Of a DNA stretch of 42,219 nucleotides, positions 146 to 35,696 are shown piece by piece. The notes under the pieces were generated by a model that saw only the letters and a list, made by a program, of their open reading frames with translations, did not search any database and was not told the origin of the DNA. How positions within the stretch are numbered: position 1 is the first letter of the stretch; each line of letters starts with the position of its first letter. Made by a program: the position numbers and the translations under genes. The stretch spans positions 1 through 42,219 of the forward strand of contig JADGCO010000034.1 in NCBI GenBank assembly GCA_015228935.1, given 5' to 3'. The stretch is from Magnetococcales bacterium. GTDB taxonomy: Bacteria > Pseudomonadota > Magnetococcia > Magnetococcales > DC0425bin3.

Positions 146-1840
146 ATGGTCCATTCCGAACTGGCGACCTCCTTTCCCAACCTGACCATTCGGCAAACCG
201 AACGTCTGCGTGCCTGGTGTACGATCTTTCTCGATTATGAACATCAACGCTATGCTGCGGGTGTTGAATTTGATTATGGAGATTGTTCGGTCGGCAATAT
301 TCTTTTTACAGGTTGCTACCTGGCGGATGGAAAAAATTTCAACAGTGCGGCGGATCAATTTTCCCATTTATGCGATGTGCGTCATTGTCGGGTATTGAAT
401 GTAACCGATGGGGCCAACCTTGTCCTGACGGCACTCAAGGATAATGGGGATTTTCTGGCCAATGAAACGAGCATTGTGTCTCTGCAAACGAATGATGTGC
501 CCATCCGGGAACTGTTTTTGCTGGACGATTATCTGCATCCGGACCAGATGCGCATCCTGGACGGTTTGGCACCCGACCAGAAGCGGGAATATTTGCATGA
601 TCTGGCCCGTTTGCCGCAACCCAACCCGGAAGCTTTGGTTGCCATTGCGGCGGCAGATTTGATCATTTATGGACCGGGCACCCAGCACTCCTCCCTCTTT
701 CCCTCCTATCTGACCCGGGGCTTGATGGAAGCCATACGCGACAACACCAAGGCCGAAAAAGTGTTTGTGGCCAACATTCGGCGCGACCATGACATTCCCA
801 ATCAATCGGTCAATCATTTATTGTCTGCATTTCATTATTACATGTCGCGCCACGGCTTGTTGCAGGTGGACCTGAAAAATTTGATTTCCACCTTGTTCAT
901 CCAGAAACATGACCAGGACAACGTCAATCGGGAGTTGGATGCCGATTATGTCAAACCGGGCGACAATTTTGCCGATGTGACCTCCATCCAGGTCCGTGCC
1001 CTGGATTGGGAAACGGACCGTGGGCGTCATTATGGGGGGCAGCTCCTGGATGAACTCATGGCCATTGCCCAGTATCTGGTGGATATCAAAATCAAACCCT
1101 ATCGCCACATGGTATCCATCATCGTGCCCATGCTCGATGAAGAACGCACCATCGGCAAGGTCGTTGCGCAACTGCTGACCCTGGATTTGAGTCGCTTCGG
1201 AGTGGCCAAGGAAATTTTGGTAGTTGATGGTGGTTCCAGGGATCATTCCGTGGCCGTGGTCAAAACCATGAAGAGCGTGCGCCTGTTTTTGCTCTCGCCG
1301 GGACAGTCTGGCCGTGGCGAAGCCCTGCGGTTGGGTCTGGCCAGGGCCAGGGGGGATGTCATTCTGTTCTTTCCCGCCGATCATGAATATTCGGTCAGCG
1401 ATATTCCCTCGGTGGTGGAACCCATCATCAACAATCAATACAAGGCCGTATTTGGCAGTCGGGCCATCAAGTGCCTGAATACAGCCCAACATATTCGCCA
1501 TATCTATGGTAACAATCGGCTTGGTTATTTTTTAAGTCGGTATGGGGGTTATTTGTTAAGTCTCGTTTCGCTGATTTTGACCAACCGTTATGTGACGGAT
1601 CCCTTTACATCGTGCAAGTGTTTCGATGGGGCACTCTTGAAATCCTTGAATTTGGTTTCAAAAGGGGTCAACCTGGAGGGGGAGATTATTGCGAAACTGG
1701 GCAGGCACAAGGAATTCATTCTTGAGGTGCCGGTCAATTATGTGCCCAGGACGAAAAAAGAAGGCAAGAAAAATGGTGTTGTTGAAGGGATCAAGACATT
1801 ATATGCTATTTTTTACCATCATTTTATGACGAAGTCCTGA
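146..1840 (+). CDS. CofD/YvcK-like domain fused to a family 2 glycosyltransferase (5' end uncertain)
   Basis: The N-terminal ~300 residues resemble the CofD/YvcK family (phospholactate transferase or gluconeogenesis-factor fold), with the motifs FDYGDCSVGNILFTG and LNVTDGANLVL. From about residue 322 a GT-A family 2 glycosyltransferase begins: VSIIVPMLDEERTIG, then VVDGGSRD, and an acceptor-side motif FFPADHEY. The GT2 part is most like dolichyl-phosphate-mannose-synthase-type enzymes, which move a sugar from a nucleotide donor to a lipid or polymer carrier. The first ATG is at 146, but family-like sequence (QFLEYRFPENTT) continues in frame up to about position 41, where a TGA at 38-40 blocks it. 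No ATG, GTG or TTG lies between. The N-terminal substrate-binding part of the CofD fold is therefore missing in this frame, which suggests a frameshift, a truncation or an assembly error. Function and substrate are unknown. Confidence 0.75.
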   Translation: MVHSELATSFPNLTIRQTERLRAWCTIFLDYEHQRYAAGVEFDYGDCSVGNILFTGCYLADGKNFNSAADQFSHLCDVRHCRVLNVTDGANLVLTALKDNGDFLANETSIVSLQTNDVPIRELFLLDDYLHPDQMRILDGLAPDQKREYLHDLARLPQPNPEALVAIAAADLIIYGPGTQHSSLFPSYLTRGLMEAIRDNTKAEKVFVANIRRDHDIPNQSVNHLLSAFHYYMSRHGLLQVDLKNLISTLFIQKHDQDNVNRELDADYVKPGDNFADVTSIQVRALDWETDRGRHYGGQLLDELMAIAQYLVDIKIKPYRHMVSIIVPMLDEERTIGKVVAQLLTLDLSRFGVAKEILVVDGGSRDHSVAVVKTMKSVRLFLLSPGQSGRGEALRLGLARARGDVILFFPADHEYSVSDIPSVVEPIINNQYKAVFGSRAIKCLNTAQHIRHIYGNNRLGYFLSRYGGYLLSLVSLILTNRYVTDPFTSCKCFDGALLKSLNLVSKGVNLEGEIIAKLGRHKEFILEVPVNYVPRTKKEGKKNGVVEGIKTLYAIFYHHFMTKS

Positions 1841-1899
1841 ACTGGGTCCATCATGCTCTTTATTTTCATCATTTCATGACAAAGTCCTGAATCGGATCC
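1803..1899. repeat. 50-bp tandem duplication over the 3' end of the CofD-GT2 gene
   Basis: Positions 1803-1849 and 1853-1899 are imperfect copies with a period of 50 bp. Each carries the same local reading (HHFMTKS followed by TGA), so the gene's last codons and stop have been copied just downstream. Several differences suggest the event is not recent. Confidence 0.75.
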
Positions 1900-2030
1900 G
1901 TTTTGACTCGGCAATGTTTCCTTTGTTTGTCTTGAAACTGGTGGGGCGCGTACAGGCATGGAAATGTGGTTGCAATGAATGTGATTTGCAGGTAGAGTTT
2001 TGCGATCTACTCATGTTGGAGCAGGTTGAA

Positions 2031-2588
2031 ATGTTCAACGAACAGAAAACAGCACAGATAGCGGCATTTTTTTTGGGTAAAACCCAGGAGAAGCGTATGC
2101 CTCATCTCAAGCTGACGAAGCTGTTGTATCTTGCCGACCGCGAAGCTGTGCGCGTGCTTGGTCTGTCAATGACCGGGGATCATCTGGTTGCAATGCCATA
2201 TGGCCCGGTCCTGACCAAGACTTTGGATTTGATGCGTGGGTCAATCGAATCAGCACCCGGTGGATGGGATGACTTGATTTCTGGCATAGAAAATTACGAA
2301 GTGTCAGTACGCAAAAAACTCAATGTCCATGAAATGGATAAGTTGAGTCAGGCAGAAATTGACGTGCTTGAGTCTGTTTGGGAACAGTTCGGACAGATGG
2401 ATCAATGGGAAATCAGTGAATGGACGCATCGAAATTGTTCGGAATGGGAAAACCCTCAAGGTTCCTCTTGGCCTATTTCTTATTATAGTGTGGCTCGTGC
2501 CGTCGGTTTTGATGATGAGTCTGCTATCGCAATTGCGGAACGTTTTGATGAACAACAATATATTGATAATTTTTTCTCTGCATTATGA
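2031..2588 (+). CDS. Panacea-domain (DUF4065/SocA-like) protein, probable antitoxin
   Basis: This 185-residue protein has the pattern of the Panacea/DUF4065 family. It has an N-terminal FNEQKTAQIAAFFL helix, the core LKLTKLLYLADREA, the hallmark GDHLVAMPYGPV, and a C-terminal DESAIAIAERFDEQQ region. Family members are mostly antitoxins, including SocA, that neutralise unrelated toxins encoded beside them. The ATG at 2031 is chosen because GGAG at 2018-2021 lies 9 bases before it and the protein then starts at the conserved helix; an in-frame ATG at 1914 has no such site. The stop overlaps the next gene's start as ATGA (2585-2588), typical of coupled toxin-antitoxin pairs. The family call is good; the antitoxin role is inferred from context. 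Confidence 0.8.
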   Translation: MFNEQKTAQIAAFFLGKTQEKRMPHLKLTKLLYLADREAVRVLGLSMTGDHLVAMPYGPVLTKTLDLMRGSIESAPGGWDDLISGIENYEVSVRKKLNVHEMDKLSQAEIDVLESVWEQFGQMDQWEISEWTHRNCSEWENPQGSSWPISYYSVARAVGFDDESAIAIAERFDEQQYIDNFFSAL

Positions 2589-3025
2589 GGTTGTTCATTC
2601 CATTTAAAAAAGCGACAGTTCTTGTTCCTTCTGGACCGAGGAATGACCCGGAGAAAAAACATCTTTTTATTGTTTTAACAGATCCGTTTGATTCTGGATT
2701 TGGAAAAAAATATGTGTTATTAGTTTCTGTTTCGAGCATTAAGAATAAGATCCCATATGATAAGACGTGTATTTTAAACCCTGGTGACCATTCTTTTATT
2801 AAACGTCGAAGTTTTATTTATTATGGACGGTCACGCATTGAAGATGCTATGGAACTAATTGATGGTGTTAAAGATAATAAACTCATTCCCTGTGAGCCGC
2901 TTGAGCAAAATATTTTTTCGTCTGTTTGTGAGGGTGTCTATAATTCTCCGCAAACTCCGCGTGGAATTATCGAATTCTATCGCATGACAATAGAGTCAGT
3001 CTCAGAAGATAATTATTTTTCTTAA
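2585..3025 (+). CDS. Putative toxin partner of the Panacea protein
   Basis: This 146-residue protein is not one I recognise. Its N-terminal half reads like a small beta-barrel (KKATVLVPSGPR, HLFIVLTDP, KYVLLVSVSS, CILNPGDH, SFIYYGRSRI), loosely like MazF/PemK-type or other TA effectors. No catalytic set can be named. It starts inside the stop codon of the Panacea gene, so the two are translationally coupled, and it is clearly more AT-rich than nearby housekeeping genes. Panacea antitoxins are known to pair with many unrelated toxins, so the toxin role here rests on position. It could instead be an accessory protein. Confidence 0.6.
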   Translation: MRLFIPFKKATVLVPSGPRNDPEKKHLFIVLTDPFDSGFGKKYVLLVSVSSIKNKIPYDKTCILNPGDHSFIKRRSFIYYGRSRIEDAMELIDGVKDNKLIPCEPLEQNIFSSVCEGVYNSPQTPRGIIEFYRMTIESVSEDNYFS

Positions 3026-3096
3026 CGAAATTACGTCTATAAATCAAAATACCTTGGTTTAAAAAATAATGAACATGAACTTATTTAGGAAATATC

Positions 3097-4809
3097 ATGC
3101 TAAACGATGTTGTGGCAATTAAAAGTCGTTCTAATAAAATGTTGCTCGCCTTTTGGCTTTGCTTTATCATTCCATTTGTGCAGCTTATTGATGTAGTCTT
3201 GAGTTTTAATGTATTGTCCAAGGGAATTTTCACCGATCAGTATCATGGCGGGGAATTTTTTGCTGCCCTTTCAACAATATTGTATGATAAAACAGGTCTA
3301 TATCCGATTACAATTCATGGTGCGTTGGATTATATTCCAGGGTTGATTGCCGTAAAAATATTTGGTCCGAATAACTATCTTTTCGCAACGGGTATTTTTT
3401 ATAATTTTTTGGATTTTTTATCTAAAATAGCGCTGATTGTTTTGGTGTTTGAACTGATCAAAAAAAAGCCGGTCAGTATCTTGCTGGCTCTAGGGCTGAC
3501 CGTGGCCATCATGAATTTTTCAGGCTACAGAAGTTTATTCCTTGTTCTCGCTATTTATTTATTTTTTCTGATCCAGAATGAATATGGTCTTCGGACACGA
3601 TTGTTTTTGGAAATTTGTTTCGGTCTTGTTTTGGCTTTTGGGGTGTTCTGGTCATTCAACAGGGGCTTGGCAGGTGTTGTATCTTTGGGGGTAGCGGCAG
3701 TATTGCATGCTTACCAGACACGACGTTATTTGGTGTCTATGGGTGTATTTTTTATTTCAATCATTTCCTTTGGATATATTTCTTCATATTTTTCGTTGGA
3801 AAATTATATAGAAAATATTAAAATATTGATCGATCTGGCAGACGGATATGTTTACACCGGAAAAGACTCTGCTGTGTTTTTCAAAATATTGATAGGTGTC
3901 CACTGTTTTTTGGTAGCAATTTTGCTGGTGTGGTCTGTAATTAAAGATAAATTTCAAATAGAACACTTGGCAAATTCCTTGATGATGATCGTATTGTTGT
4001 TGTTTATGTATAAAATAGTTTCAGACAAGGCGGACCGGGTGCATTTTGTCAGTGGTATGTTGGGTCCTGTCATTGCTGGGGCCTATTTTTATTCCAGAAT
4101 TCAAATTGAAAAATATTATATTTTGCAGAAAATTACATCAGGATTGATGCTTGCCTATTTTCTGCTCATGAGTAGATATTCATGGTTTATTCCCTTCATG
4201 GGTAATCACACTGTGGATATTACATTTCCCAGGGAGCTTTCTGTGGCATTAATATTGTTGGGGGTGTTTTCATTTTTTCAAGTATTCAATCGTCTCATGA
4301 ATACATATAAAATATATTGGCTGGCGTTGGGGTCTGTCCTGGTTTTGGGAATGTCGCGATTTATTTTAATATTGTTTGGATTATATAGTGGTCAATATCA
4401 TTGGACAGATCGTTTCAGCACGTTGCCACCCAATGCAGAATCTGTCATGAAAGGGGTGCGTTGGGCATCCGGGGAGTTGCTGGAGAGTGGAACCTCGTGT
4501 CTGTTTGATTTTTCGAGCAATGGAACCATCAATGGTTTGTCGGGTTTGCCTAATTGTACACGATTCAGCACCCTGGTCTATGCGGCCCAGAGCCATGAAA
4601 AAGAAATTATCGCAACCATAAAAAAGAAAAAACCCAAGGCGGTTGTCTATTCTTCAACGCATTGGGCATTCAGAATTAATAATTTGTCAATGCATGTCAA
4701 ATTTCCGGAATTGAATAATTTGTTTCTCAAAGAGTATACCGAAGAAAAATGCCAGCACGGTCTTTGTGTTCGATATTTGACAGAAAGTAACTATTCAGCC
4801 TCCGAATAA
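3097..4809 (+). CDS. Polytopic membrane protein of unknown function
   Basis: This 570-residue protein has at least ten strongly hydrophobic segments, e.g. LLAFWLCFIIPFVQLIDVVL near the N-terminus, ILLALGLTVAIMNF and SVALILLGVFSFFQVF. A hydrophilic domain of ~130 residues follows at the C-terminus. The layout (many helices, then a soluble tail) recalls GT-C or PMT-type glycosyltransferases or O-antigen-type membrane proteins, but I find no diagnostic motif. AGGA at 3087-3090 supports the ATG at 3097. The gene is AT-rich compared with the ribosomal operon, which suggests transfer. Its last seven residues (SNYSASE) and stop codon fall inside the left end of a mobile repeat at 4787, so the native C-terminus has probably been replaced. 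Confidence 0.75.
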   Translation: MLNDVVAIKSRSNKMLLAFWLCFIIPFVQLIDVVLSFNVLSKGIFTDQYHGGEFFAALSTILYDKTGLYPITIHGALDYIPGLIAVKIFGPNNYLFATGIFYNFLDFLSKIALIVLVFELIKKKPVSILLALGLTVAIMNFSGYRSLFLVLAIYLFFLIQNEYGLRTRLFLEICFGLVLAFGVFWSFNRGLAGVVSLGVAAVLHAYQTRRYLVSMGVFFISIISFGYISSYFSLENYIENIKILIDLADGYVYTGKDSAVFFKILIGVHCFLVAILLVWSVIKDKFQIEHLANSLMMIVLLLFMYKIVSDKADRVHFVSGMLGPVIAGAYFYSRIQIEKYYILQKITSGLMLAYFLLMSRYSWFIPFMGNHTVDITFPRELSVALILLGVFSFFQVFNRLMNTYKIYWLALGSVLVLGMSRFILILFGLYSGQYHWTDRFSTLPPNAESVMKGVRWASGELLESGTSCLFDFSSNGTINGLSGLPNCTRFSTLVYAAQSHEKEIIATIKKKKPKAVVYSSTHWAFRINNLSMHVKFPELNNLFLKEYTEEKCQHGLCVRYLTESNYSASE

Positions 4810-5032
4810 TAAACGTTGGAAAAAAAATTTTCATGTCAAATCCCTTTTTGAAAGACTCTGAAAGGCTGTCTGATGACTTGTTAATTTCAAAAAAAGAATG
4901 AAAAACTGGGATGGAGGTCCAGGAGGAAGGGCTGTGCCCTTTCTCCTGGCGGGGTTTGGGGCGGAGCCCCAACAAAGTCTTTCATGTCAAATCCTTTTTT
5001 TGAAAAAATTTTGAAAAACTCTGAATGGTTAC
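4787..5032 (+). mobile_element. MITE-like element, copy 1 (rearranged, 246 bp)
   Basis: The left end GTAACTATTCAG (4787-4798) pairs with the right end CTGAATGGTTAC (5021-5032) as inverted repeats matching at 11 of 12 bases. The inside carries the shared hairpin core (about 4915-4976) with a GGGGCGGAGCCCC palindrome. Flanks GACAGAAA (4779-4786) and GGCAGAAT (5033-5040) match at 6 of 8, consistent with a decayed 8-bp target duplication. It is about 90 bp longer than the other two copies because the segment near 4832-4862 is a partial second copy of its right part. It codes for no transposase. Confidence 0.7.
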
Positions 5033-6143: not shown

Positions 6144-6199
6144 CCTGGGAGGAAGGGGTGTGCCCTTCCTCCTGGCAGGTTTTGGGGCGAAGCCCCAAC
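6144..6199. repeat. Hairpin-core repeat without MITE ends (copy between radical SAM and fmdB genes)
   Basis: It contains the two stacked palindromes of the larger elements: AGGAAGGG with CCCTTCCT around a short loop, then GGGGCGAAGCCCC. No terminal inverted repeats are seen. It lies between two minus-strand genes and could act as a processing or termination hairpin. Confidence 0.65.
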
Positions 6200-6233: not shown

Positions 6234-6461
6234 TCAAAGGCCGCACATACCGCCGCCACAGCCACCGGTGGGGCATGAGGGCATGGGGGCATGGCTTTCC
6301 TGTCCCATTTTTGTTGACCCCAGAACACCGCCGGTAGAAAAAATTTTGCGCAATTTGTCCTGACCACAACCAGGACAGCGGGTGGCGATGGGATCGGACA
6401 TCGCGTGATTGATTTCAAATTTTCCGTTACAGGCGTCACATTTGTAGTCGTAGAGGGGCAT
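6234..6461 (-). CDS. FmdB-family zinc-ribbon protein
   Basis: This 75-residue protein starts MPLYDYKCDACNGKFE and has the second knuckle CPGCGQ, matching the FmdB/CxxC_CxxC_SSSS putative regulatory family. The four cysteines should bind one zinc ion. The C-terminus is glycine- and cysteine-rich (CPTGGCGGGMC), also usual for the family. The ATG at 6461 is preferred over the one at 6467 because GGGAG sits about 8 bases before it. The family's role is poorly defined; FmdB itself was proposed as a regulator of formamidase or amidase genes. Nothing nearby points to that substrate. Confidence 0.85.
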   Translation of the reverse strand: MPLYDYKCDACNGKFEINHAMSDPIATRCPGCGQDKLRKIFSTGGVLGSTKMGQESHAPMPSCPTGGCGGGMCGL

Positions 6462-6547
6462 GTTCATTTCTCCCTGCATGGGAAGCTGACGAAGAGGCTG
6501 TTTGGGAATGTTGGACAAGGTAACCAATTGGAATACGTATATATTTT

Positions 6548-6702
6548 GTAACTATTCAGCATCCCCATATAAAACGTTTGAAAAACTGGGATGGGGGTCC
6601 AGGGGGAAGGGCTGTGCCCTTCCCCCTGGCGGGGTTTGGGGCGGAGCCCCAACAAAGTCTTTTATATCAAATCCTTTTTTTGCAAGGGTTCTGAATAGAT
6701 AC
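6548..6702 (+). mobile_element. MITE-like element, copy 2 (155 bp, with perfect target duplication)
   Basis: The ends GTAACTATTCAG (6548-6559) and CTGAATAGATAC (6691-6702) are inverted repeats matching at 11 of 12. The element is flanked on both sides by the 8-bp direct repeat TATATTTT (6540-6547 and 6703-6710), directly outside the inverted repeats, which is a transposition signature. The inside holds two strong hairpins (GGGGGAAGGG with CCCTTCCCCC, and GGGGCGGAGCCCC). No coding capacity. It sits in the gap between fmdB and the rpsF operon. Confidence 0.8.
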
Positions 6703-6790
6703 TATATTTTAAAAAAGGATTGCAAGAGTGTGACGAAGTTGAGAGAGCCTCATTGCCGGGTAAACGCGGTCTGATGTGCTGAAAGCGAAG

Positions 6791-6817
6791 AGGAGGAAGG
6801 GGCGTGCCCTTCCTCCT
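6791..6817. repeat. 11-bp perfect hairpin downstream of rplI
   Basis: AGGAGGAAGGG (6791-6801) and its exact complement (6807-6817) flank a 5-base loop, 41 bases past the rplI stop. It is the first half of the hairpin core seen in the MITE-like elements. It could end or protect the rpsF operon transcript, but lacks a T-run on the minus strand, so it is not a classic intrinsic terminator. Confidence 0.55.
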
Positions 6818-6858
6818 GGATATTCACCTTGATTACTGCCGACGTATGGCCGGACAAA

Positions 6859-7311
6859 TCAGGCTTTGACGCTGCGATCCACGCGCACGGTCATGGGCAC
6901 GATCACATCGGGATGGAGACGGATCCGGCCTGCGTGTTCGCCCAGGGTACGAATGGGGCTTCCCAGTTCGATCAGGCTGCGCGAGACCTGGATCCCTTTT
7001 TCTTTCAGAAAGGCGGCAATGTCGGCATTGGTGACCGAGCCGAACAGTTTATCGGCGGCTCCTGCCGGGCGTTCCAGGACGAATTGCACCTCGGCAATGC
7101 GCGTGGCGAGTTCTTCGGCCTGTGCCCTGACCTCTTTTTGTCGCGCCTCGAAGGCGGCGCGTTCGGCTTCGAAGCGGGCGATATTGTCCCGTGTGGCGGG
7201 CAGGGCCTTGCCGCTGGGGATCAAAAAGTTGCGTCCGTAGCCATTTTTGACTTTGACGACATCGCCCAGATTGCCGTAGCGGCTGATTTTTTCCAGCAGA
7301 ATGACTTCCAT
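6859..7311 (-). CDS. rplI: 50S ribosomal protein L9
   Basis: This 150-residue protein has the L9 signature MEVILLEKISRYGNLGDVV followed by VKNGYGRNFLIPSGKA, then the long charged connecting helix and a C-terminal domain with HPDVIVPMTV. L9 binds 23S rRNA at the base of the L1 stalk and helps keep the reading frame. Length matches the family (~148). It is the last gene of the rpsF operon, 6 bases after the DUF2232 gene, with a short AAGG site before the ATG. Confidence 0.98.
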   Translation of the reverse strand: MEVILLEKISRYGNLGDVVKVKNGYGRNFLIPSGKALPATRDNIARFEAERAAFEARQKEVRAQAEELATRIAEVQFVLERPAGAADKLFGSVTNADIAAFLKEKGIQVSRSLIELGSPIRTLGEHAGRIRLHPDVIVPMTVRVDRSVKA

Positions 7312-21408: not shown

Positions 21409-21488
21409 GGGGTCCAGGGGGCTGGCTCCCTGGCAGGTCCAGGACAGAGTCCTGGCGGGGTATGGGGCGGAGCCCCATGCTGTTTTTT
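21409..21488. repeat. Variant GC-rich hairpin cluster
   Basis: Three successive palindromes occur: CCAGGGGGCTGGCTCCCTGG, CCAGGACAGAGTCCTGG and GGGGCGGAGCCCC, followed by a run of T. The last one and its surroundings match the core of the MITE-like elements. There are no terminal inverted repeats. With the next hairpin it fills most of the gap 21341-21699; I see no gene there. Confidence 0.6.
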
Positions 21489-21553
21489 TACGCCCCCCTT
21501 TTCCCAGGATTTTTTTGCGCTGTTTGCAAAAAAATCCCAGGGGGCGGGCCATG

Positions 21554-26180: not shown

Positions 26181-28724
26181 ATGGGTTTGTTGTTGCTGGC
26201 CATGTTGCTGGGAATTTTATTGAACCTGCATGTTCCGGTCGGGGAGGGGGATCTTTGGGCCGTGCGCGGCATGGTTGGGCTGGCAACGTACCTGGCTTGG
26301 CGACAGGCTCCAGACGGATATGCACGCTGGCGGCGGCTGATCCTGGGTCTTGGGCTGGGTCTGGCGGCAGCGGCCTGGGAGGATTGGCAGGCGCTGCATC
26401 CCCACTGGGAGCCTGCGGTGGGCAAGGGAGGCAAGCCCTTTGTCGCCATGGTCGTAGATCGCAATGATCGGGATGATTCGGTGCAACTGCTGTTGGAGGA
26501 TTTTCGTTGGGACCAGGAAGAGGCCAGGAAGCCGGGATCGGAAAACGTTGACTTGCACCAGAAACAGACCGAGGTGTCGGTATCGGAAAACGTTGACCTG
26601 AACAAGAAACAGACCGAGGTGTCGGGAGCGGCAAACGTTGACCTGAACATGAAAAAGACCGAGGTGTCGGGAACGGCAAACGTTGACCTGAACAAGAAAC
26701 AGACCGAGGTGTCGGGAGCGGCAAACGTTGACTGGCACCGGGAACAGACCGAGGTGCCAGGATGGGTCCAATTGACCGTTTATCGGCAGGCCGTTGATCT
26801 CCTTCCGGGGGATCGGATTGCAGGTGTGGCCAGCGTGCGTCCCTGGACGGATTATCGGGTTCCAGGCGTATTCTCCTACGGAGACTTCATGCGCCGGCAG
26901 GGGGTGAAGGCCTCAGGATATACCCTGGAATCTCCCCGGGTGGTGGAACAGACCGGCCAGTGGCGCGTCAACCGTATGCGCCAACGCATTTCCGGATGGG
27001 TGACCGACCACATTCCCCCGCATCAACAAGGATTGGTGGAGGGGATCCTGGTCGGCAAACGGGGCCGCATCACCGAGCAACAGAATGAAACCATGCGCAG
27101 TGCCGGCCTGATTCACCTGGTGGCCATTTCAGGATCGAATCTGGGGCTGGTGGCCGGCTGGATGTTTTTTGGCCTGCGGCGCATCCTGCTCCTGGTGATG
27201 CCCCTGGCACGTCGTTGGGATGTCAAACGGTTTGCCGCCATGGGTGCCCTGCTGTTGACGCTGGGCTATGCAGCCCTGGCCGGGTGGTCGGTGGCTACGC
27301 AAAGGGCAGCCATCATGATTGCCATGTACCTGCTGGCCATGGCGCTGGGCCGGGGCAATCAATCCTGGCGTGCCCTGGGAATGGCCGCCATCCTGATTCT
27401 GTTGTTGCAGCCTCACCAACTGTTTCAGGCCGGGTTTCAACTGTCATTTCTGGCCGTGGCCACCCTGCTGGTGGTGACTGAAAGAAAATATGCCTCGGGC
27501 TGGTGGAACTATCCGGTGACCATGCTGCTCTCGACCGTTGCCATCGGCTGCGTGCTGACGCCGGTCACGGCACACCATTTTCATCAGGCGTCACCCTACG
27601 GCATGCTGGCCAATATTCCGGCCATTCCCTGGGTGGGGGTGGTGGCGGTTCCATTGGGCATGATCGGTTTGCTGTTGTTGCCCGTATCAAATACGGCAGG
27701 CGGTTGGGTATTGACCCTCATGGGCTGGAGTCTGGAGCTGTTTGATCGCTGGGCGGTCTGGATCAGCGATTTGCCGGGGGCCTGGCTGCGCCTGCCAGGC
27801 CCGACCTTGCCGGGCACGGTTCTCATGGTGCTGGCCATGGTGGGCGGAGTCGTGGGGCGGGGTGTCTGGCGACGCCTGGGTTGCCTGGTGTTGCTGGTCG
27901 GAGGCTGGTTCTGGCCCCATCCCGCGCCGCCTCCGGGATCCATGCAGGTGACGGTGCTGGATGTGCAACAGGGACAAAGCGTCCTGTTGCACGCCCCGAC
28001 CGGGGGGTGGTCGGTCATCGATGCCGGCGGTCCGGCGACGGCCCGCTTCAATGTCGGCGAATCCATCATCTCCGCCTACCTCTGGTACCAGGGAGTGCGA
28101 AAACTGGAGCGCCTCGTGTTGAGCCACCCGCAACAGGACCATATGGCCGGAGCCACCCGCCTGTTGCGCAATTTTCCGATTGGCGAACTCTGGTTGGGAT
28201 CGTTTCCCCGGGATGAGAACGAACGGACCGATTATCGACAGATTCTGGCCATGGCTGACCGGCAGGGTGTCACCATCCGTCGCTTTCAGACGGAAGTGAC
28301 GCTGCAAGCGGATGGCCTGGATTTTCGCATTCTGCCACCTTATCCGGGAGGTGGTGCCAGGCAGGATAACGACCACTCCCTGGTTCTGGAAGTGACGCAC
28401 GGCACGCAACGGGTGCTATTCCCGGGTGACATTCAAAAGGCTGGCGAAAAGTGGCTGGTGCGCAATGGCGCATTGGTACCGGTGGCACTGACATTGGCTC
28501 CTCATCACGGCAGTTCCGGCTCCAGTACCCCGGATTTTGTCCAGGGTGTCCATCCTGACCATGTGGTGTTCAGTGTCGGCAGAAACAATCGTTATGGATT
28601 TCCCAAAGAGGATACCCTGCAACGCTGGGCTGCGACCAAAGCCAGAATCTGGCGAACGGATCTGGATGGTACGGTCGTCTTTCGTTCGGATGGTCGCCGC
28701 CTGGAAAAGGTGGATGGGTTATGA
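26181..28724 (+). CDS. comEC: ComEC/Rec2 DNA-uptake channel with an internal repeat
   Basis: This 847-residue protein has the three ComEC parts: an N-terminal membrane and soluble OB-like region, the competence domain (GLVEGILVGKRGRI, AGLIHLVAISGSNLGLV) with many helices, and a C-terminal metallo-beta-lactamase domain from residue ~588. That domain holds DVQQGQSVLLHAP, SHPQQDHMAG, LFPGDIQ and APHHGSSGS. ComEC moves single-stranded DNA across the inner membrane during transformation. Residues ~120-194, in the N-terminal soluble part, are five tandem copies of a 15-residue unit (consensus like NVDLNKKQTEVSG). This is not a normal ComEC feature. The ATG at 26181 has GGAGAG 6 bases upstream. Confidence 0.93.
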   Translation: MGLLLLAMLLGILLNLHVPVGEGDLWAVRGMVGLATYLAWRQAPDGYARWRRLILGLGLGLAAAAWEDWQALHPHWEPAVGKGGKPFVAMVVDRNDRDDSVQLLLEDFRWDQEEARKPGSENVDLHQKQTEVSVSENVDLNKKQTEVSGAANVDLNMKKTEVSGTANVDLNKKQTEVSGAANVDWHREQTEVPGWVQLTVYRQAVDLLPGDRIAGVASVRPWTDYRVPGVFSYGDFMRRQGVKASGYTLESPRVVEQTGQWRVNRMRQRISGWVTDHIPPHQQGLVEGILVGKRGRITEQQNETMRSAGLIHLVAISGSNLGLVAGWMFFGLRRILLLVMPLARRWDVKRFAAMGALLLTLGYAALAGWSVATQRAAIMIAMYLLAMALGRGNQSWRALGMAAILILLLQPHQLFQAGFQLSFLAVATLLVVTERKYASGWWNYPVTMLLSTVAIGCVLTPVTAHHFHQASPYGMLANIPAIPWVGVVAVPLGMIGLLLLPVSNTAGGWVLTLMGWSLELFDRWAVWISDLPGAWLRLPGPTLPGTVLMVLAMVGGVVGRGVWRRLGCLVLLVGGWFWPHPAPPPGSMQVTVLDVQQGQSVLLHAPTGGWSVIDAGGPATARFNVGESIISAYLWYQGVRKLERLVLSHPQQDHMAGATRLLRNFPIGELWLGSFPRDENERTDYRQILAMADRQGVTIRRFQTEVTLQADGLDFRILPPYPGGGARQDNDHSLVLEVTHGTQRVLFPGDIQKAGEKWLVRNGALVPVALTLAPHHGSSGSSTPDFVQGVHPDHVVFSVGRNNRYGFPKEDTLQRWAATKARIWRTDLDGTVVFRSDGRRLEKVDGL
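26536..26760 (+). repeat. Five tandem 45-bp repeats inside comEC
   Basis: The marker AACGTTG recurs at 26544, 26589, 26634, 26679 and 26724, a constant 45-base period. The unit is a multiple of three, so the frame is kept. The outer copies diverge most (DLHQ and DWHRE versus DLNKK). Confidence 0.93.
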
Positions 28725-34768: not shown

Positions 34769-35542
34769 TCAGGGAAATCGTCCGCTGTGTCCCAAAGCAA
34801 AGCGGGCCATCCATTTTGTCCTGTGTTTGAGAATACTTAAATAAATTTTATCGAAAAAAGTGCCCTTGCCCAGGTTTTTCATATATTTCTTCCCATCCGT
34901 ATGCAGAATGACGGGTTCCTGAAGCAGGTCTCCATAGATCCATCCTTCCCTGTATTGTCTCGTAATGTTTTCTTCTATACCGGAAGAGCGGGCTTTCTTG
35001 ATATTGATCAACGGCATGTATGTCAATCGGGCGTGTTCCCTGTCAAGCAAATGGGGATTGTTTGAAAACTGCGTCGTTTTGCAAAACGGCACGTCTCCAA
35101 CACAGTCCGGCACGGCAGACAAGGTTTCCACGGTGGTAGACTGGTTTGGAAATCGATTGAATCTCACATAGGGAATGGAATTGTTTTGCATCGACTGACA
35201 TATGGTCAACAAGTCATGACGCAACCTGCCCTGGATGAATACCCAATCGTGTTCAAATTGCAACAGGCAGTCTGCATCACTGAGCTGGATACTTTTCAGA
35301 TAGCCGTCCGCCAGTCCCCTGGTATAATAAAATGTGAATGGGTAACTGACAAGAGAGGCAGCAACTTTTTGATAAAATTGCATTCGATTGTGAATGAACG
35401 GGCCGTGATGACAAAAGACTTTTATTGAATTGAAAATATCGAGTCCAACCTGTTCATGCAACGATTCAATCGTATTGAAAAATGGTGTATCATCGATATG
35501 ATTGCTGCAAAAATTTGTAAACAAATTCAGATCAAGTTTCAT
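34769..35542 (-). CDS. Uncharacterised protein, possibly a glycosyltransferase-like enzyme
   Basis: This 257-residue protein has no domain I can name with certainty. It reads like a GT-A type fold: IKVFCHHGP, YYTRGLADGYLKSI, and an acidic LLQFEHDWVF in the place of a DxD motif. A C-terminal basic region (LKHRTKWMARFALGHSG) follows. The gene is AT-rich and convergent with the MBL gene (5-base gap). Its ATG abuts the end of a MITE-like element, so its untranslated leader and any promoter lie within or beyond that element. AAGGG about 13 bases upstream, inside the element, is the only ribosome-site candidate. Confidence 0.6.
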   Translation of the reverse strand: MKLDLNLFTNFCSNHIDDTPFFNTIESLHEQVGLDIFNSIKVFCHHGPFIHNRMQFYQKVAASLVSYPFTFYYTRGLADGYLKSIQLSDADCLLQFEHDWVFIQGRLRHDLLTICQSMQNNSIPYVRFNRFPNQSTTVETLSAVPDCVGDVPFCKTTQFSNNPHLLDREHARLTYMPLINIKKARSSGIEENITRQYREGWIYGDLLQEPVILHTDGKKYMKNLGKGTFFDKIYLSILKHRTKWMARFALGHSGRFP

Positions 35543-35696
35543 GATCTATTCAGAACCCTTGCAAAAAAAAGACTTGATATGAAAGGCTTTGTTGGGGCTT
35601 TGCCCCAAACCCCGCCAGGGGGAAGGGCAGAGCCGCTCCCCCCTGGACCCCCATCCCAGTTTTTCAAACATTTTCAATGGGGGGCTGAATAGATAC
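35542..35696 (-). mobile_element. MITE-like element, copy 3 (155 bp, inverted)
   Basis: Ends ATCTATTCAG (35544-35553) and CTGAATAGATAC (35685-35696) are inverted repeats matching for the inner 10 bases. The core hairpins are those of copy 2 in the opposite orientation, and the length is the same, 155 bp. Flanking target duplication is weak (only TTTCA shared). It lies between pgm and the AT-rich unknown gene and reaches that gene's start codon. Confidence 0.75.

What the first reader, a model, noticed from the sequence alone, without database searches (positions are those of the whole stretch)
6540..6710. Short non-coding element with terminal inverted repeats and a perfect 8-bp target duplication
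The 155-bp unit at 6548-6702 has 12-bp terminal inverted repeats (11 of 12 matching) and an exact TATATTTT repeat directly outside both ends. Copies of similar design occur at 4787-5032 and 35542-35696. Their inside folds into two GC-rich hairpins that also occur alone at 6144, 6791 and 21409. This is a miniature inverted-repeat element family that must be moved by a transposase encoded elsewhere.
Basis: seen in the sequence. Interest (0 to 1): 0.8.

Follow-up and report, generated by a model that had tools for sequence, protein, structure and literature searches.

The report
Transposase-less IS66-type mini-transposon (MITE) family
The 155-bp segment is a real, non-coding "hitch-hiker" transposon that most likely spread around this bacterial genome using the cutting enzyme of an IS66-type (ISBst12-group) insertion sequence, and elements with the same 12-bp ends but unrelated hairpin-rich insides turn up in many bacterial phyla.

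Summary
Confirmed and largely explained. Window 6548-6702 has the stated 12-bp ends (11/12) and an exact 8-bp direct repeat, TATATTTT. The genome holds dozens of copies. Of 53 candidate end pairs, 14 have a perfect and 9 a 7/8 flanking 8-bp repeat; partner shuffling predicts 0.7 together. The corresponding site in three relatives is empty. It is therefore a MITE. I add its engine: the ends and the 8-bp duplication are those of single-ORF IS66 (ISBst12-group) insertion sequences, found intact in members of the same order, multi-copy in a same-family genome and as a relic in a same-genus genome. The window's own assembly has no IS66 transposase, so the family is orphaned there, or its IS is missing from the assembly. 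The interior is a pair of GC-rich hairpins that also exists as a dispersed repeat outside the element, including in a congener with no MITE found. A scan of about 85,000 genomes with only the ends found at least 117 stretches in many phyla. Of 82 testable elements, 42 have an exact 8-bp repeat; interiors form 37 unrelated families, mostly strongly folding. A new member of a known kind; the phylum-wide breadth is the more interesting part.

The parts
6540..6547 (.). left copy of 8-bp target duplication TATATTTT
6548..6702 (+). 155-bp MITE, youngest copy in the window
   Evidence: orthologous site empty in three relatives
6548..6559 (+). left terminal inverted repeat GTAACTATTCAG
   Evidence: identical to ends of IS66 single-ORF elements L126 and L130
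6599..6629 (+). interior hairpin 1, 14-bp stem with 3-nt loop
6636..6652 (+). interior hairpin 2, TTGGGGC/GCCCCAA
   Evidence: centroid structure; 160 motif matches in the genome
6691..6702 (-). right terminal inverted repeat GTATCTATTCAG (read on minus strand)
6703..6710 (.). right copy of target duplication TATATTTT
4787..5032 (+). older 246-bp copy with internal rearrangement; flanks GACAGAAA/GGCAGAAT (6/8)
35542..35696 (-). older 155-bp copy, opposite orientation, one decayed end; no element in the relatives' interval next to the conserved right flank
6144..6197 (+). hairpin pair without element ends
6789..6819 (+). hairpin 1 alone, without element ends
21409..21490 (+). related hairpin array followed by a T run (terminator-like), without element ends

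Best explanation
The unit is a non-autonomous MITE whose ends are recognised by the transposase of an ISBst12-group (single-ORF) IS66-family insertion sequence. Shown by sequence: the transposon-type ends, the 8-bp target duplication, many dispersed copies, empty orthologous sites, and autonomous elements with the same ends in relatives. Inferred: a transposase supplied in trans bound the 12-bp ends (plus some subterminal sequence), moved or copied the 155-bp DNA, and inserted it at staggered cuts 8 bp apart, mostly in intergenic DNA. The interior is a pair of GC-rich hairpins related to a dispersed genus-specific repeat, probably captured between two IS ends when the MITE formed. The family has amplified separately in at least two species of the genus. 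In the window's genome the transposase is now absent from the assembly, so these copies are probably immobile unless an IS is re-acquired or was missed by the assembly.
For: Copies: the element query matches 57 places in the genome, with full-length copies 84-97% identical. TSDs: 14 of 53 candidate end pairs 8/8 and 9 more 7/8, against 0.32 and 0.38 expected from partner shuffling. Empty sites: between the zinc-ribbon and rplI genes the conserved flanks are 40, 52 and 23 bp apart in G003, G002 and G001, but about 400 bp apart in the window; the L012 site also lacks the element in all three. Parent: IS66 loci L126, L129 and L130 have ends GTAACTATTCA(G/C)CACC and 7/8, 8/8 and 8/8 TSDs around one ORF; proteins are PF03050 and NF033517 IS66. 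The same-family genome G001 has a multi-copy relative 82% identical in protein, and same-genus G003 has a fragment at 72% whose contig carries the end GTAACTATTCACCACCC. IS66 copies of about 2.5 kb in the same set begin GTAAGCG instead, so the MITE ends fit the ISBst12 group. Literature: ISDge4, ISBst12 group, has a single ORF, ends GTGACTACTCAGCA/GTAACTGCTCAGCA and an 8-bp repeat (PMC12898284). Elsewhere: MITE and matching IS66 with 8/8 TSDs coexist in Lachnospiraceae GAM79.
Against: No IS66 transposase or remnant in the window's own assembly (best hit E = 0.4; PF03050 none). Outside the ends the MITE shares little with any IS found, so derivation by simple internal deletion is not shown. About half of the candidate end pairs have poor TSDs; some are chance pairings, some old copies. 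Transposition itself was not observed.
Confidence: 0.92

Rival explanations
1. Ordinary REP-like or terminator hairpins that only look like a transposon because AT-rich flanks resemble each other.
For: The hairpins do occur without ends, and the 21409 array and the G002 copies are followed by T runs, like intrinsic terminators.
Against: Copies end precisely at the 12-bp ends; 14 exact 8-bp flanking repeats against 0.3 expected; in other phyla exact repeats are found in 42/82 elements at 8 bp but in 0 at 5-6 and 1 each at 7 and 9 bp; orthologous sites are empty.
Confidence: 0.03
2. A MITE mobilised by a different transposase family that also makes 8-bp duplications (for example ISL3, IS256 or ISAs1).
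For: The own genome has no IS66 transposase; several families make 8-bp duplications (general knowledge).
Against: The exact end sequence GTAACTATTCA(G/C) plus 8-bp TSD is found on IS66 single-ORF elements in the same order and in two other bacteria. Ends of other IS families in this genome were not surveyed.
Confidence: 0.04
3. The hairpin pair is native to the MITE, and the lone hairpins elsewhere are decayed MITEs rather than a captured repeat. (This concerns the origin of the interior only and is compatible with the main explanation.)
For: Some lone hairpins lie beside MITE fragments, and truncated MITEs can come to resemble REPs (QMITE2, review PMC10969869).
Against: G002 has 118 hairpin motifs but no exact-end MITE, and its copies lack the ends nearby; G003 has 508 hairpin motifs and about 36 exact-end MITEs. 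G002 is only 76% complete.
Confidence: 0.3

Closest known systems
ISBst12 group of the IS66 family (for example ISDge4, PMC12898284)
   Same: near-identical ends (GTAACTATTCAG against GTAACTGCTCAGCA/GTGACTACTCAGCA), 8-bp target duplication
   Different: no transposase gene; 155 bp instead of about 1.7 kb; hairpin interior not found in the IS
Bacterial MITEs with a known parent, for example MITECca01/ISCca4 (IS982) of Cardinium (PMC9769881)
   Same: short, non-coding, multicopy, TIRs shared with a full-length IS
   Different: parent is IS66 (ISBst12 group) and absent from the same assembly; interior carries a separate dispersed hairpin repeat
QMITE2 of Coxiella and Chunjie of Geobacter (review PMC10969869)
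   Same: size range, copy number, structured interior (QMITE2), many partial copies
   Different: IS66 is not named anywhere in that review; their end sequences were not compared here
REP/REPIN palindromic repeats
   Same: GC-rich hairpin pairs dispersed between genes
   Different: bounded by TIRs and 8-bp TSDs here; a REP-associated tyrosine transposase was not searched for

Membership tests
MITE (non-autonomous DNA transposon) | terminal inverted repeats | tested here: met
   12 bp, 11/12
MITE (non-autonomous DNA transposon) | target site duplication of fixed length | tested here: met
   8 bp; 14/53 exact and 9/53 at 7/8 in own genome; G003 copies L324, L326, L330 8/8; only length 8 enriched across phyla
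MITE (non-autonomous DNA transposon) | many dispersed copies, no transposase inside | tested here: met
   57 matching places, 131 end motifs; 155 bp is too short for a transposase gene
MITE (non-autonomous DNA transposon) | empty sites in relatives | tested here: met
   window 6548 and L012 sites in G001, G002, G003; window 35542 region has no element in the relatives beside the conserved flank
IS66 family, ISBst12 group (as the mobilising system) | ends matching those of autonomous members | tested here: met
   L126, L129, L130, L289, L295, L302
IS66 family, ISBst12 group (as the mobilising system) | 8-bp target duplication | tested here: met
   MITE; IS copies L129, L130, L295, L302 8/8
IS66 family, ISBst12 group (as the mobilising system) | single ORF, no tnpA/tnpB (for the parent) | tested here: met
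   L130: ORF 1387-3006 fills the 1345-3066 element; L129 likewise; PF03050 and NF033517
IS66 family, ISBst12 group (as the mobilising system) | autonomous partner in the same genome | tested here: not met
   none in the draft assembly; relic in same genus and multi-copy in same family. Not required to be a MITE, but needed for present mobility
IS66 family, ISBst12 group (as the mobilising system) | transposase acts on these ends | not testable with these tools
   needs a transposition assay
REP/REPIN | RAYT (Y1 transposase) partner and tagged palindrome | not tested
   no RAYT search was made
Intrinsic terminator | stem directly followed by a T run | tested here: not met
   no terminator call inside 6548-6702; one lies at the lone hairpin 6791-6817, minus strand

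The most novel reading that the evidence does not exclude
ISBst12-type ends (GTAACTATTCAG, 8-bp duplication) define one large, hitherto unrecognised pan-bacterial class of about 150-bp MITEs that has repeatedly and independently packaged unrelated hairpin-forming intergenic repeats, so that a strongly folding interior is selected, either for transposition by the IS66 transposase or for tolerance between genes.
Probability: 0.35. Interest if true: 0.65.

Novelty: new member of a known kind. Interest (0 to 1): 0.42.

Why it matters
It assigns a parent to a dispersed bacterial repeat and shows that the same 12-bp IS66/ISBst12 ends carry short non-coding elements in many phyla. IS66-type MITEs were not found in the papers searched here. 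It also gives a way in which GC-rich hairpin repeats could spread between genes, and offers natural minimal substrates for studying the poorly characterised transposition of the ISBst12 group.

Tried and rejected
A search for a full-length IS in the own genome: two ends with non-hairpin interiors (C146:4267, C1:275434) proved to be solo ends next to ordinary genes. My first pattern missed all copies because its gap limit was 1 bp too short. Canonical IS66 was rejected as parent: the 2.5-kb copies have GTAAGCG ends. Gene disruption: spanning frames at L012, L014 and L016 were examined; L012 lies just past a recX-like stop codon (gene name from memory), and none was shown to cut a gene. Rfam: no match in the window. 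The flank query was pasted by hand and came out at 4316 instead of 6016 bases, so its coordinates were used only to fetch loci; the junctions were re-checked on the real sequences. Literature: nothing on the end sequence.

Full report
Observation. The element at 6548-6702 is as described: ends GTAACTATTCAG and CTGAATAGATAC (11/12 complementary) directly inside TATATTTT on both sides. All five window matches to the 12-mer (up to 2 mismatches; 1.2 expected) are ends of the three claimed elements. The copies at 4787-5032 and 35542-35696 are related over most of their length but older: their flanking 8-mers match 6/8 and 5/8.

Genome-wide. The window is a complete contig (C34) of a 4.7-Mb, 197-contig assembly. 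The 155-bp query matches 57 places, about 30 of them near full length (only 40 of 324 first-look candidates were scored, so this is a lower bound). The end motif occurs 131 times (up to 1 mismatch) against 4 for the reversed control. Among 53 candidate end pairs, a set that still includes some spurious pairings, the flanking 8-mers match 8/8 in 14 and 7/8 in 9; shuffled partners give 0.32 and 0.38. Many contigs break inside the element, as expected for a young repeat. Hairpin-less derivatives of 79 and 68 bp exist (C85:8034-8112, C54:59-126), with flanking 8-mers matching 6/8 and 7/8. A second subfamily of 146-148 bp with a different hairpin set is shared with congener G003.

Empty sites. At the window's site, between a zinc-ribbon gene (6300-6461) and rplI (6859-7311), the conserved flanks lie 40, 52 and 23 bp apart in G003, G002 and G001, but about 400 bp apart in the window. 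The L012 insertion is likewise absent from all three. At 35542 only the right flank aligns, and the relatives show no element beside it.

Engine. PF03050 (IS66) is absent from the own assembly, and a protein search with an IS66 transposase finds nothing credible (E 0.4). In the order, single-ORF IS66 elements have the same ends: L130 (1722 bp, 540-aa ORF, TSD GTCTTTGC 8/8), L129 (1740 bp, 539 aa, TSD GAAGCAGA 8/8), L126 (TSD 7/8). Their proteins match PF03050, and L129 and L130 also NF033517. Same-family G001 holds several copies or pieces of a close relative (82% protein identity), and same-genus G003 holds a fragment at 72% with the end GTAACTATTCACCACCC upstream. IS66 copies of 2.5 kb in the same search have GTAAGCG ends instead. 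ISDge4, assigned to the ISBst12 group, has ends GTGACTACTCAGCA/GTAACTGCTCAGCA and an 8-bp direct repeat (PMC12898284). The MITE therefore belongs with the ISBst12 group. That it is moved by that transposase is an inference from ends and duplication length.

Interior. The RNA fold of the element gives -67 kcal/mol, z = -4.1. The hairpin-2 motif occurs 160 times in the own genome, 508 in G003, 118 in G002 and 0 in G001. Exact-end MITEs occur in the own genome and G003 only, out of 48 genomes of the order. G002 copies of the hairpins lack the ends and are often followed by T runs. I favour capture of a pre-existing dispersed hairpin repeat by IS ends; decay of MITEs into lone hairpins is not excluded.

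Beyond the order. Of 82 elements with both flanks, 42 have an exact 8-bp repeat and 16 more 7/8; shuffles give 0.63 and 0.42, and exact repeats of 5 and 6 bp number 0 and of 7 and 9 bp one each. Interiors fall into 37 unrelated clusters besides the window's. With the 12-bp ends removed, 64 of 83 fold with z below -3 against 5 of 83 flanking controls; residual complementarity beyond 12 bp may contribute. In 20 such genomes an IS66 domain was found in 11. Lachnospiraceae GAM79 carries two intact copies with GTAACTATTCAG ends and 8/8 TSDs in the same genome as its MITE.

Limits. Transposition was not observed. The literature search covers open-licence PMC only; no paper linking MITEs to the ISBst12 group was found, which is not proof of absence.

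Verdict. A well-supported MITE family with an identified parent group: a new member of a known kind. The wide recurrence of the same ends around unrelated folding interiors deserves a proper survey.

Noticed in passing
G003 C3:3899-4199 (L327), C3 pair ending at 50960 (L330), C4:36720-37020; own genome C26:38285-38604 (L328): Four tandem pairs of neighbouring MITEs are all separated by exactly 7 bp, one less than the 8-bp duplication, though the paired elements differ in sequence where both were read. This may reflect insertion next to an existing end or a feature of the IS66 mechanism.
   Followed up: partly
L144, L150, L153, L164, L185, L191, L219 and others; own genome L091 and L048: In 28 of 84 elements from other genomes a second, inner copy of the end lies near one terminus, in nearly all about 20, 31 or 44 bp in (roughly whole helical turns). 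The intact IS66 elements examined do not show it.
   Followed up: partly
L156, L161, L174, L149, L182, L210, L217, L171, L194: Several interiors look like palindromic intergenic repeats that I recall as common in distant bacteria (TGTCATTGCGA..., GTAGGTTGGGTTA..., GTCATCCCCGC...); these ends may be one vehicle that spreads them.
   Followed up: no
window 26473-26762: Tandem 45-bp repeat, about five overlapping register copies, inside the frame of a ComEC-like (Competence) gene.
   Followed up: no
G001 C1, C60, C95, C226: Several contigs of the same-family genome begin inside the same IS66 transposase tail, which suggests a multi-copy, possibly active IS there, although no MITE was found in that genome.
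   Followed up: partly
own genome C40:24135-24384 (L018, L067): A 250-bp MITE copy with an 8/8 target duplication carries an internal tandem duplication of its right end.
   Followed up: no
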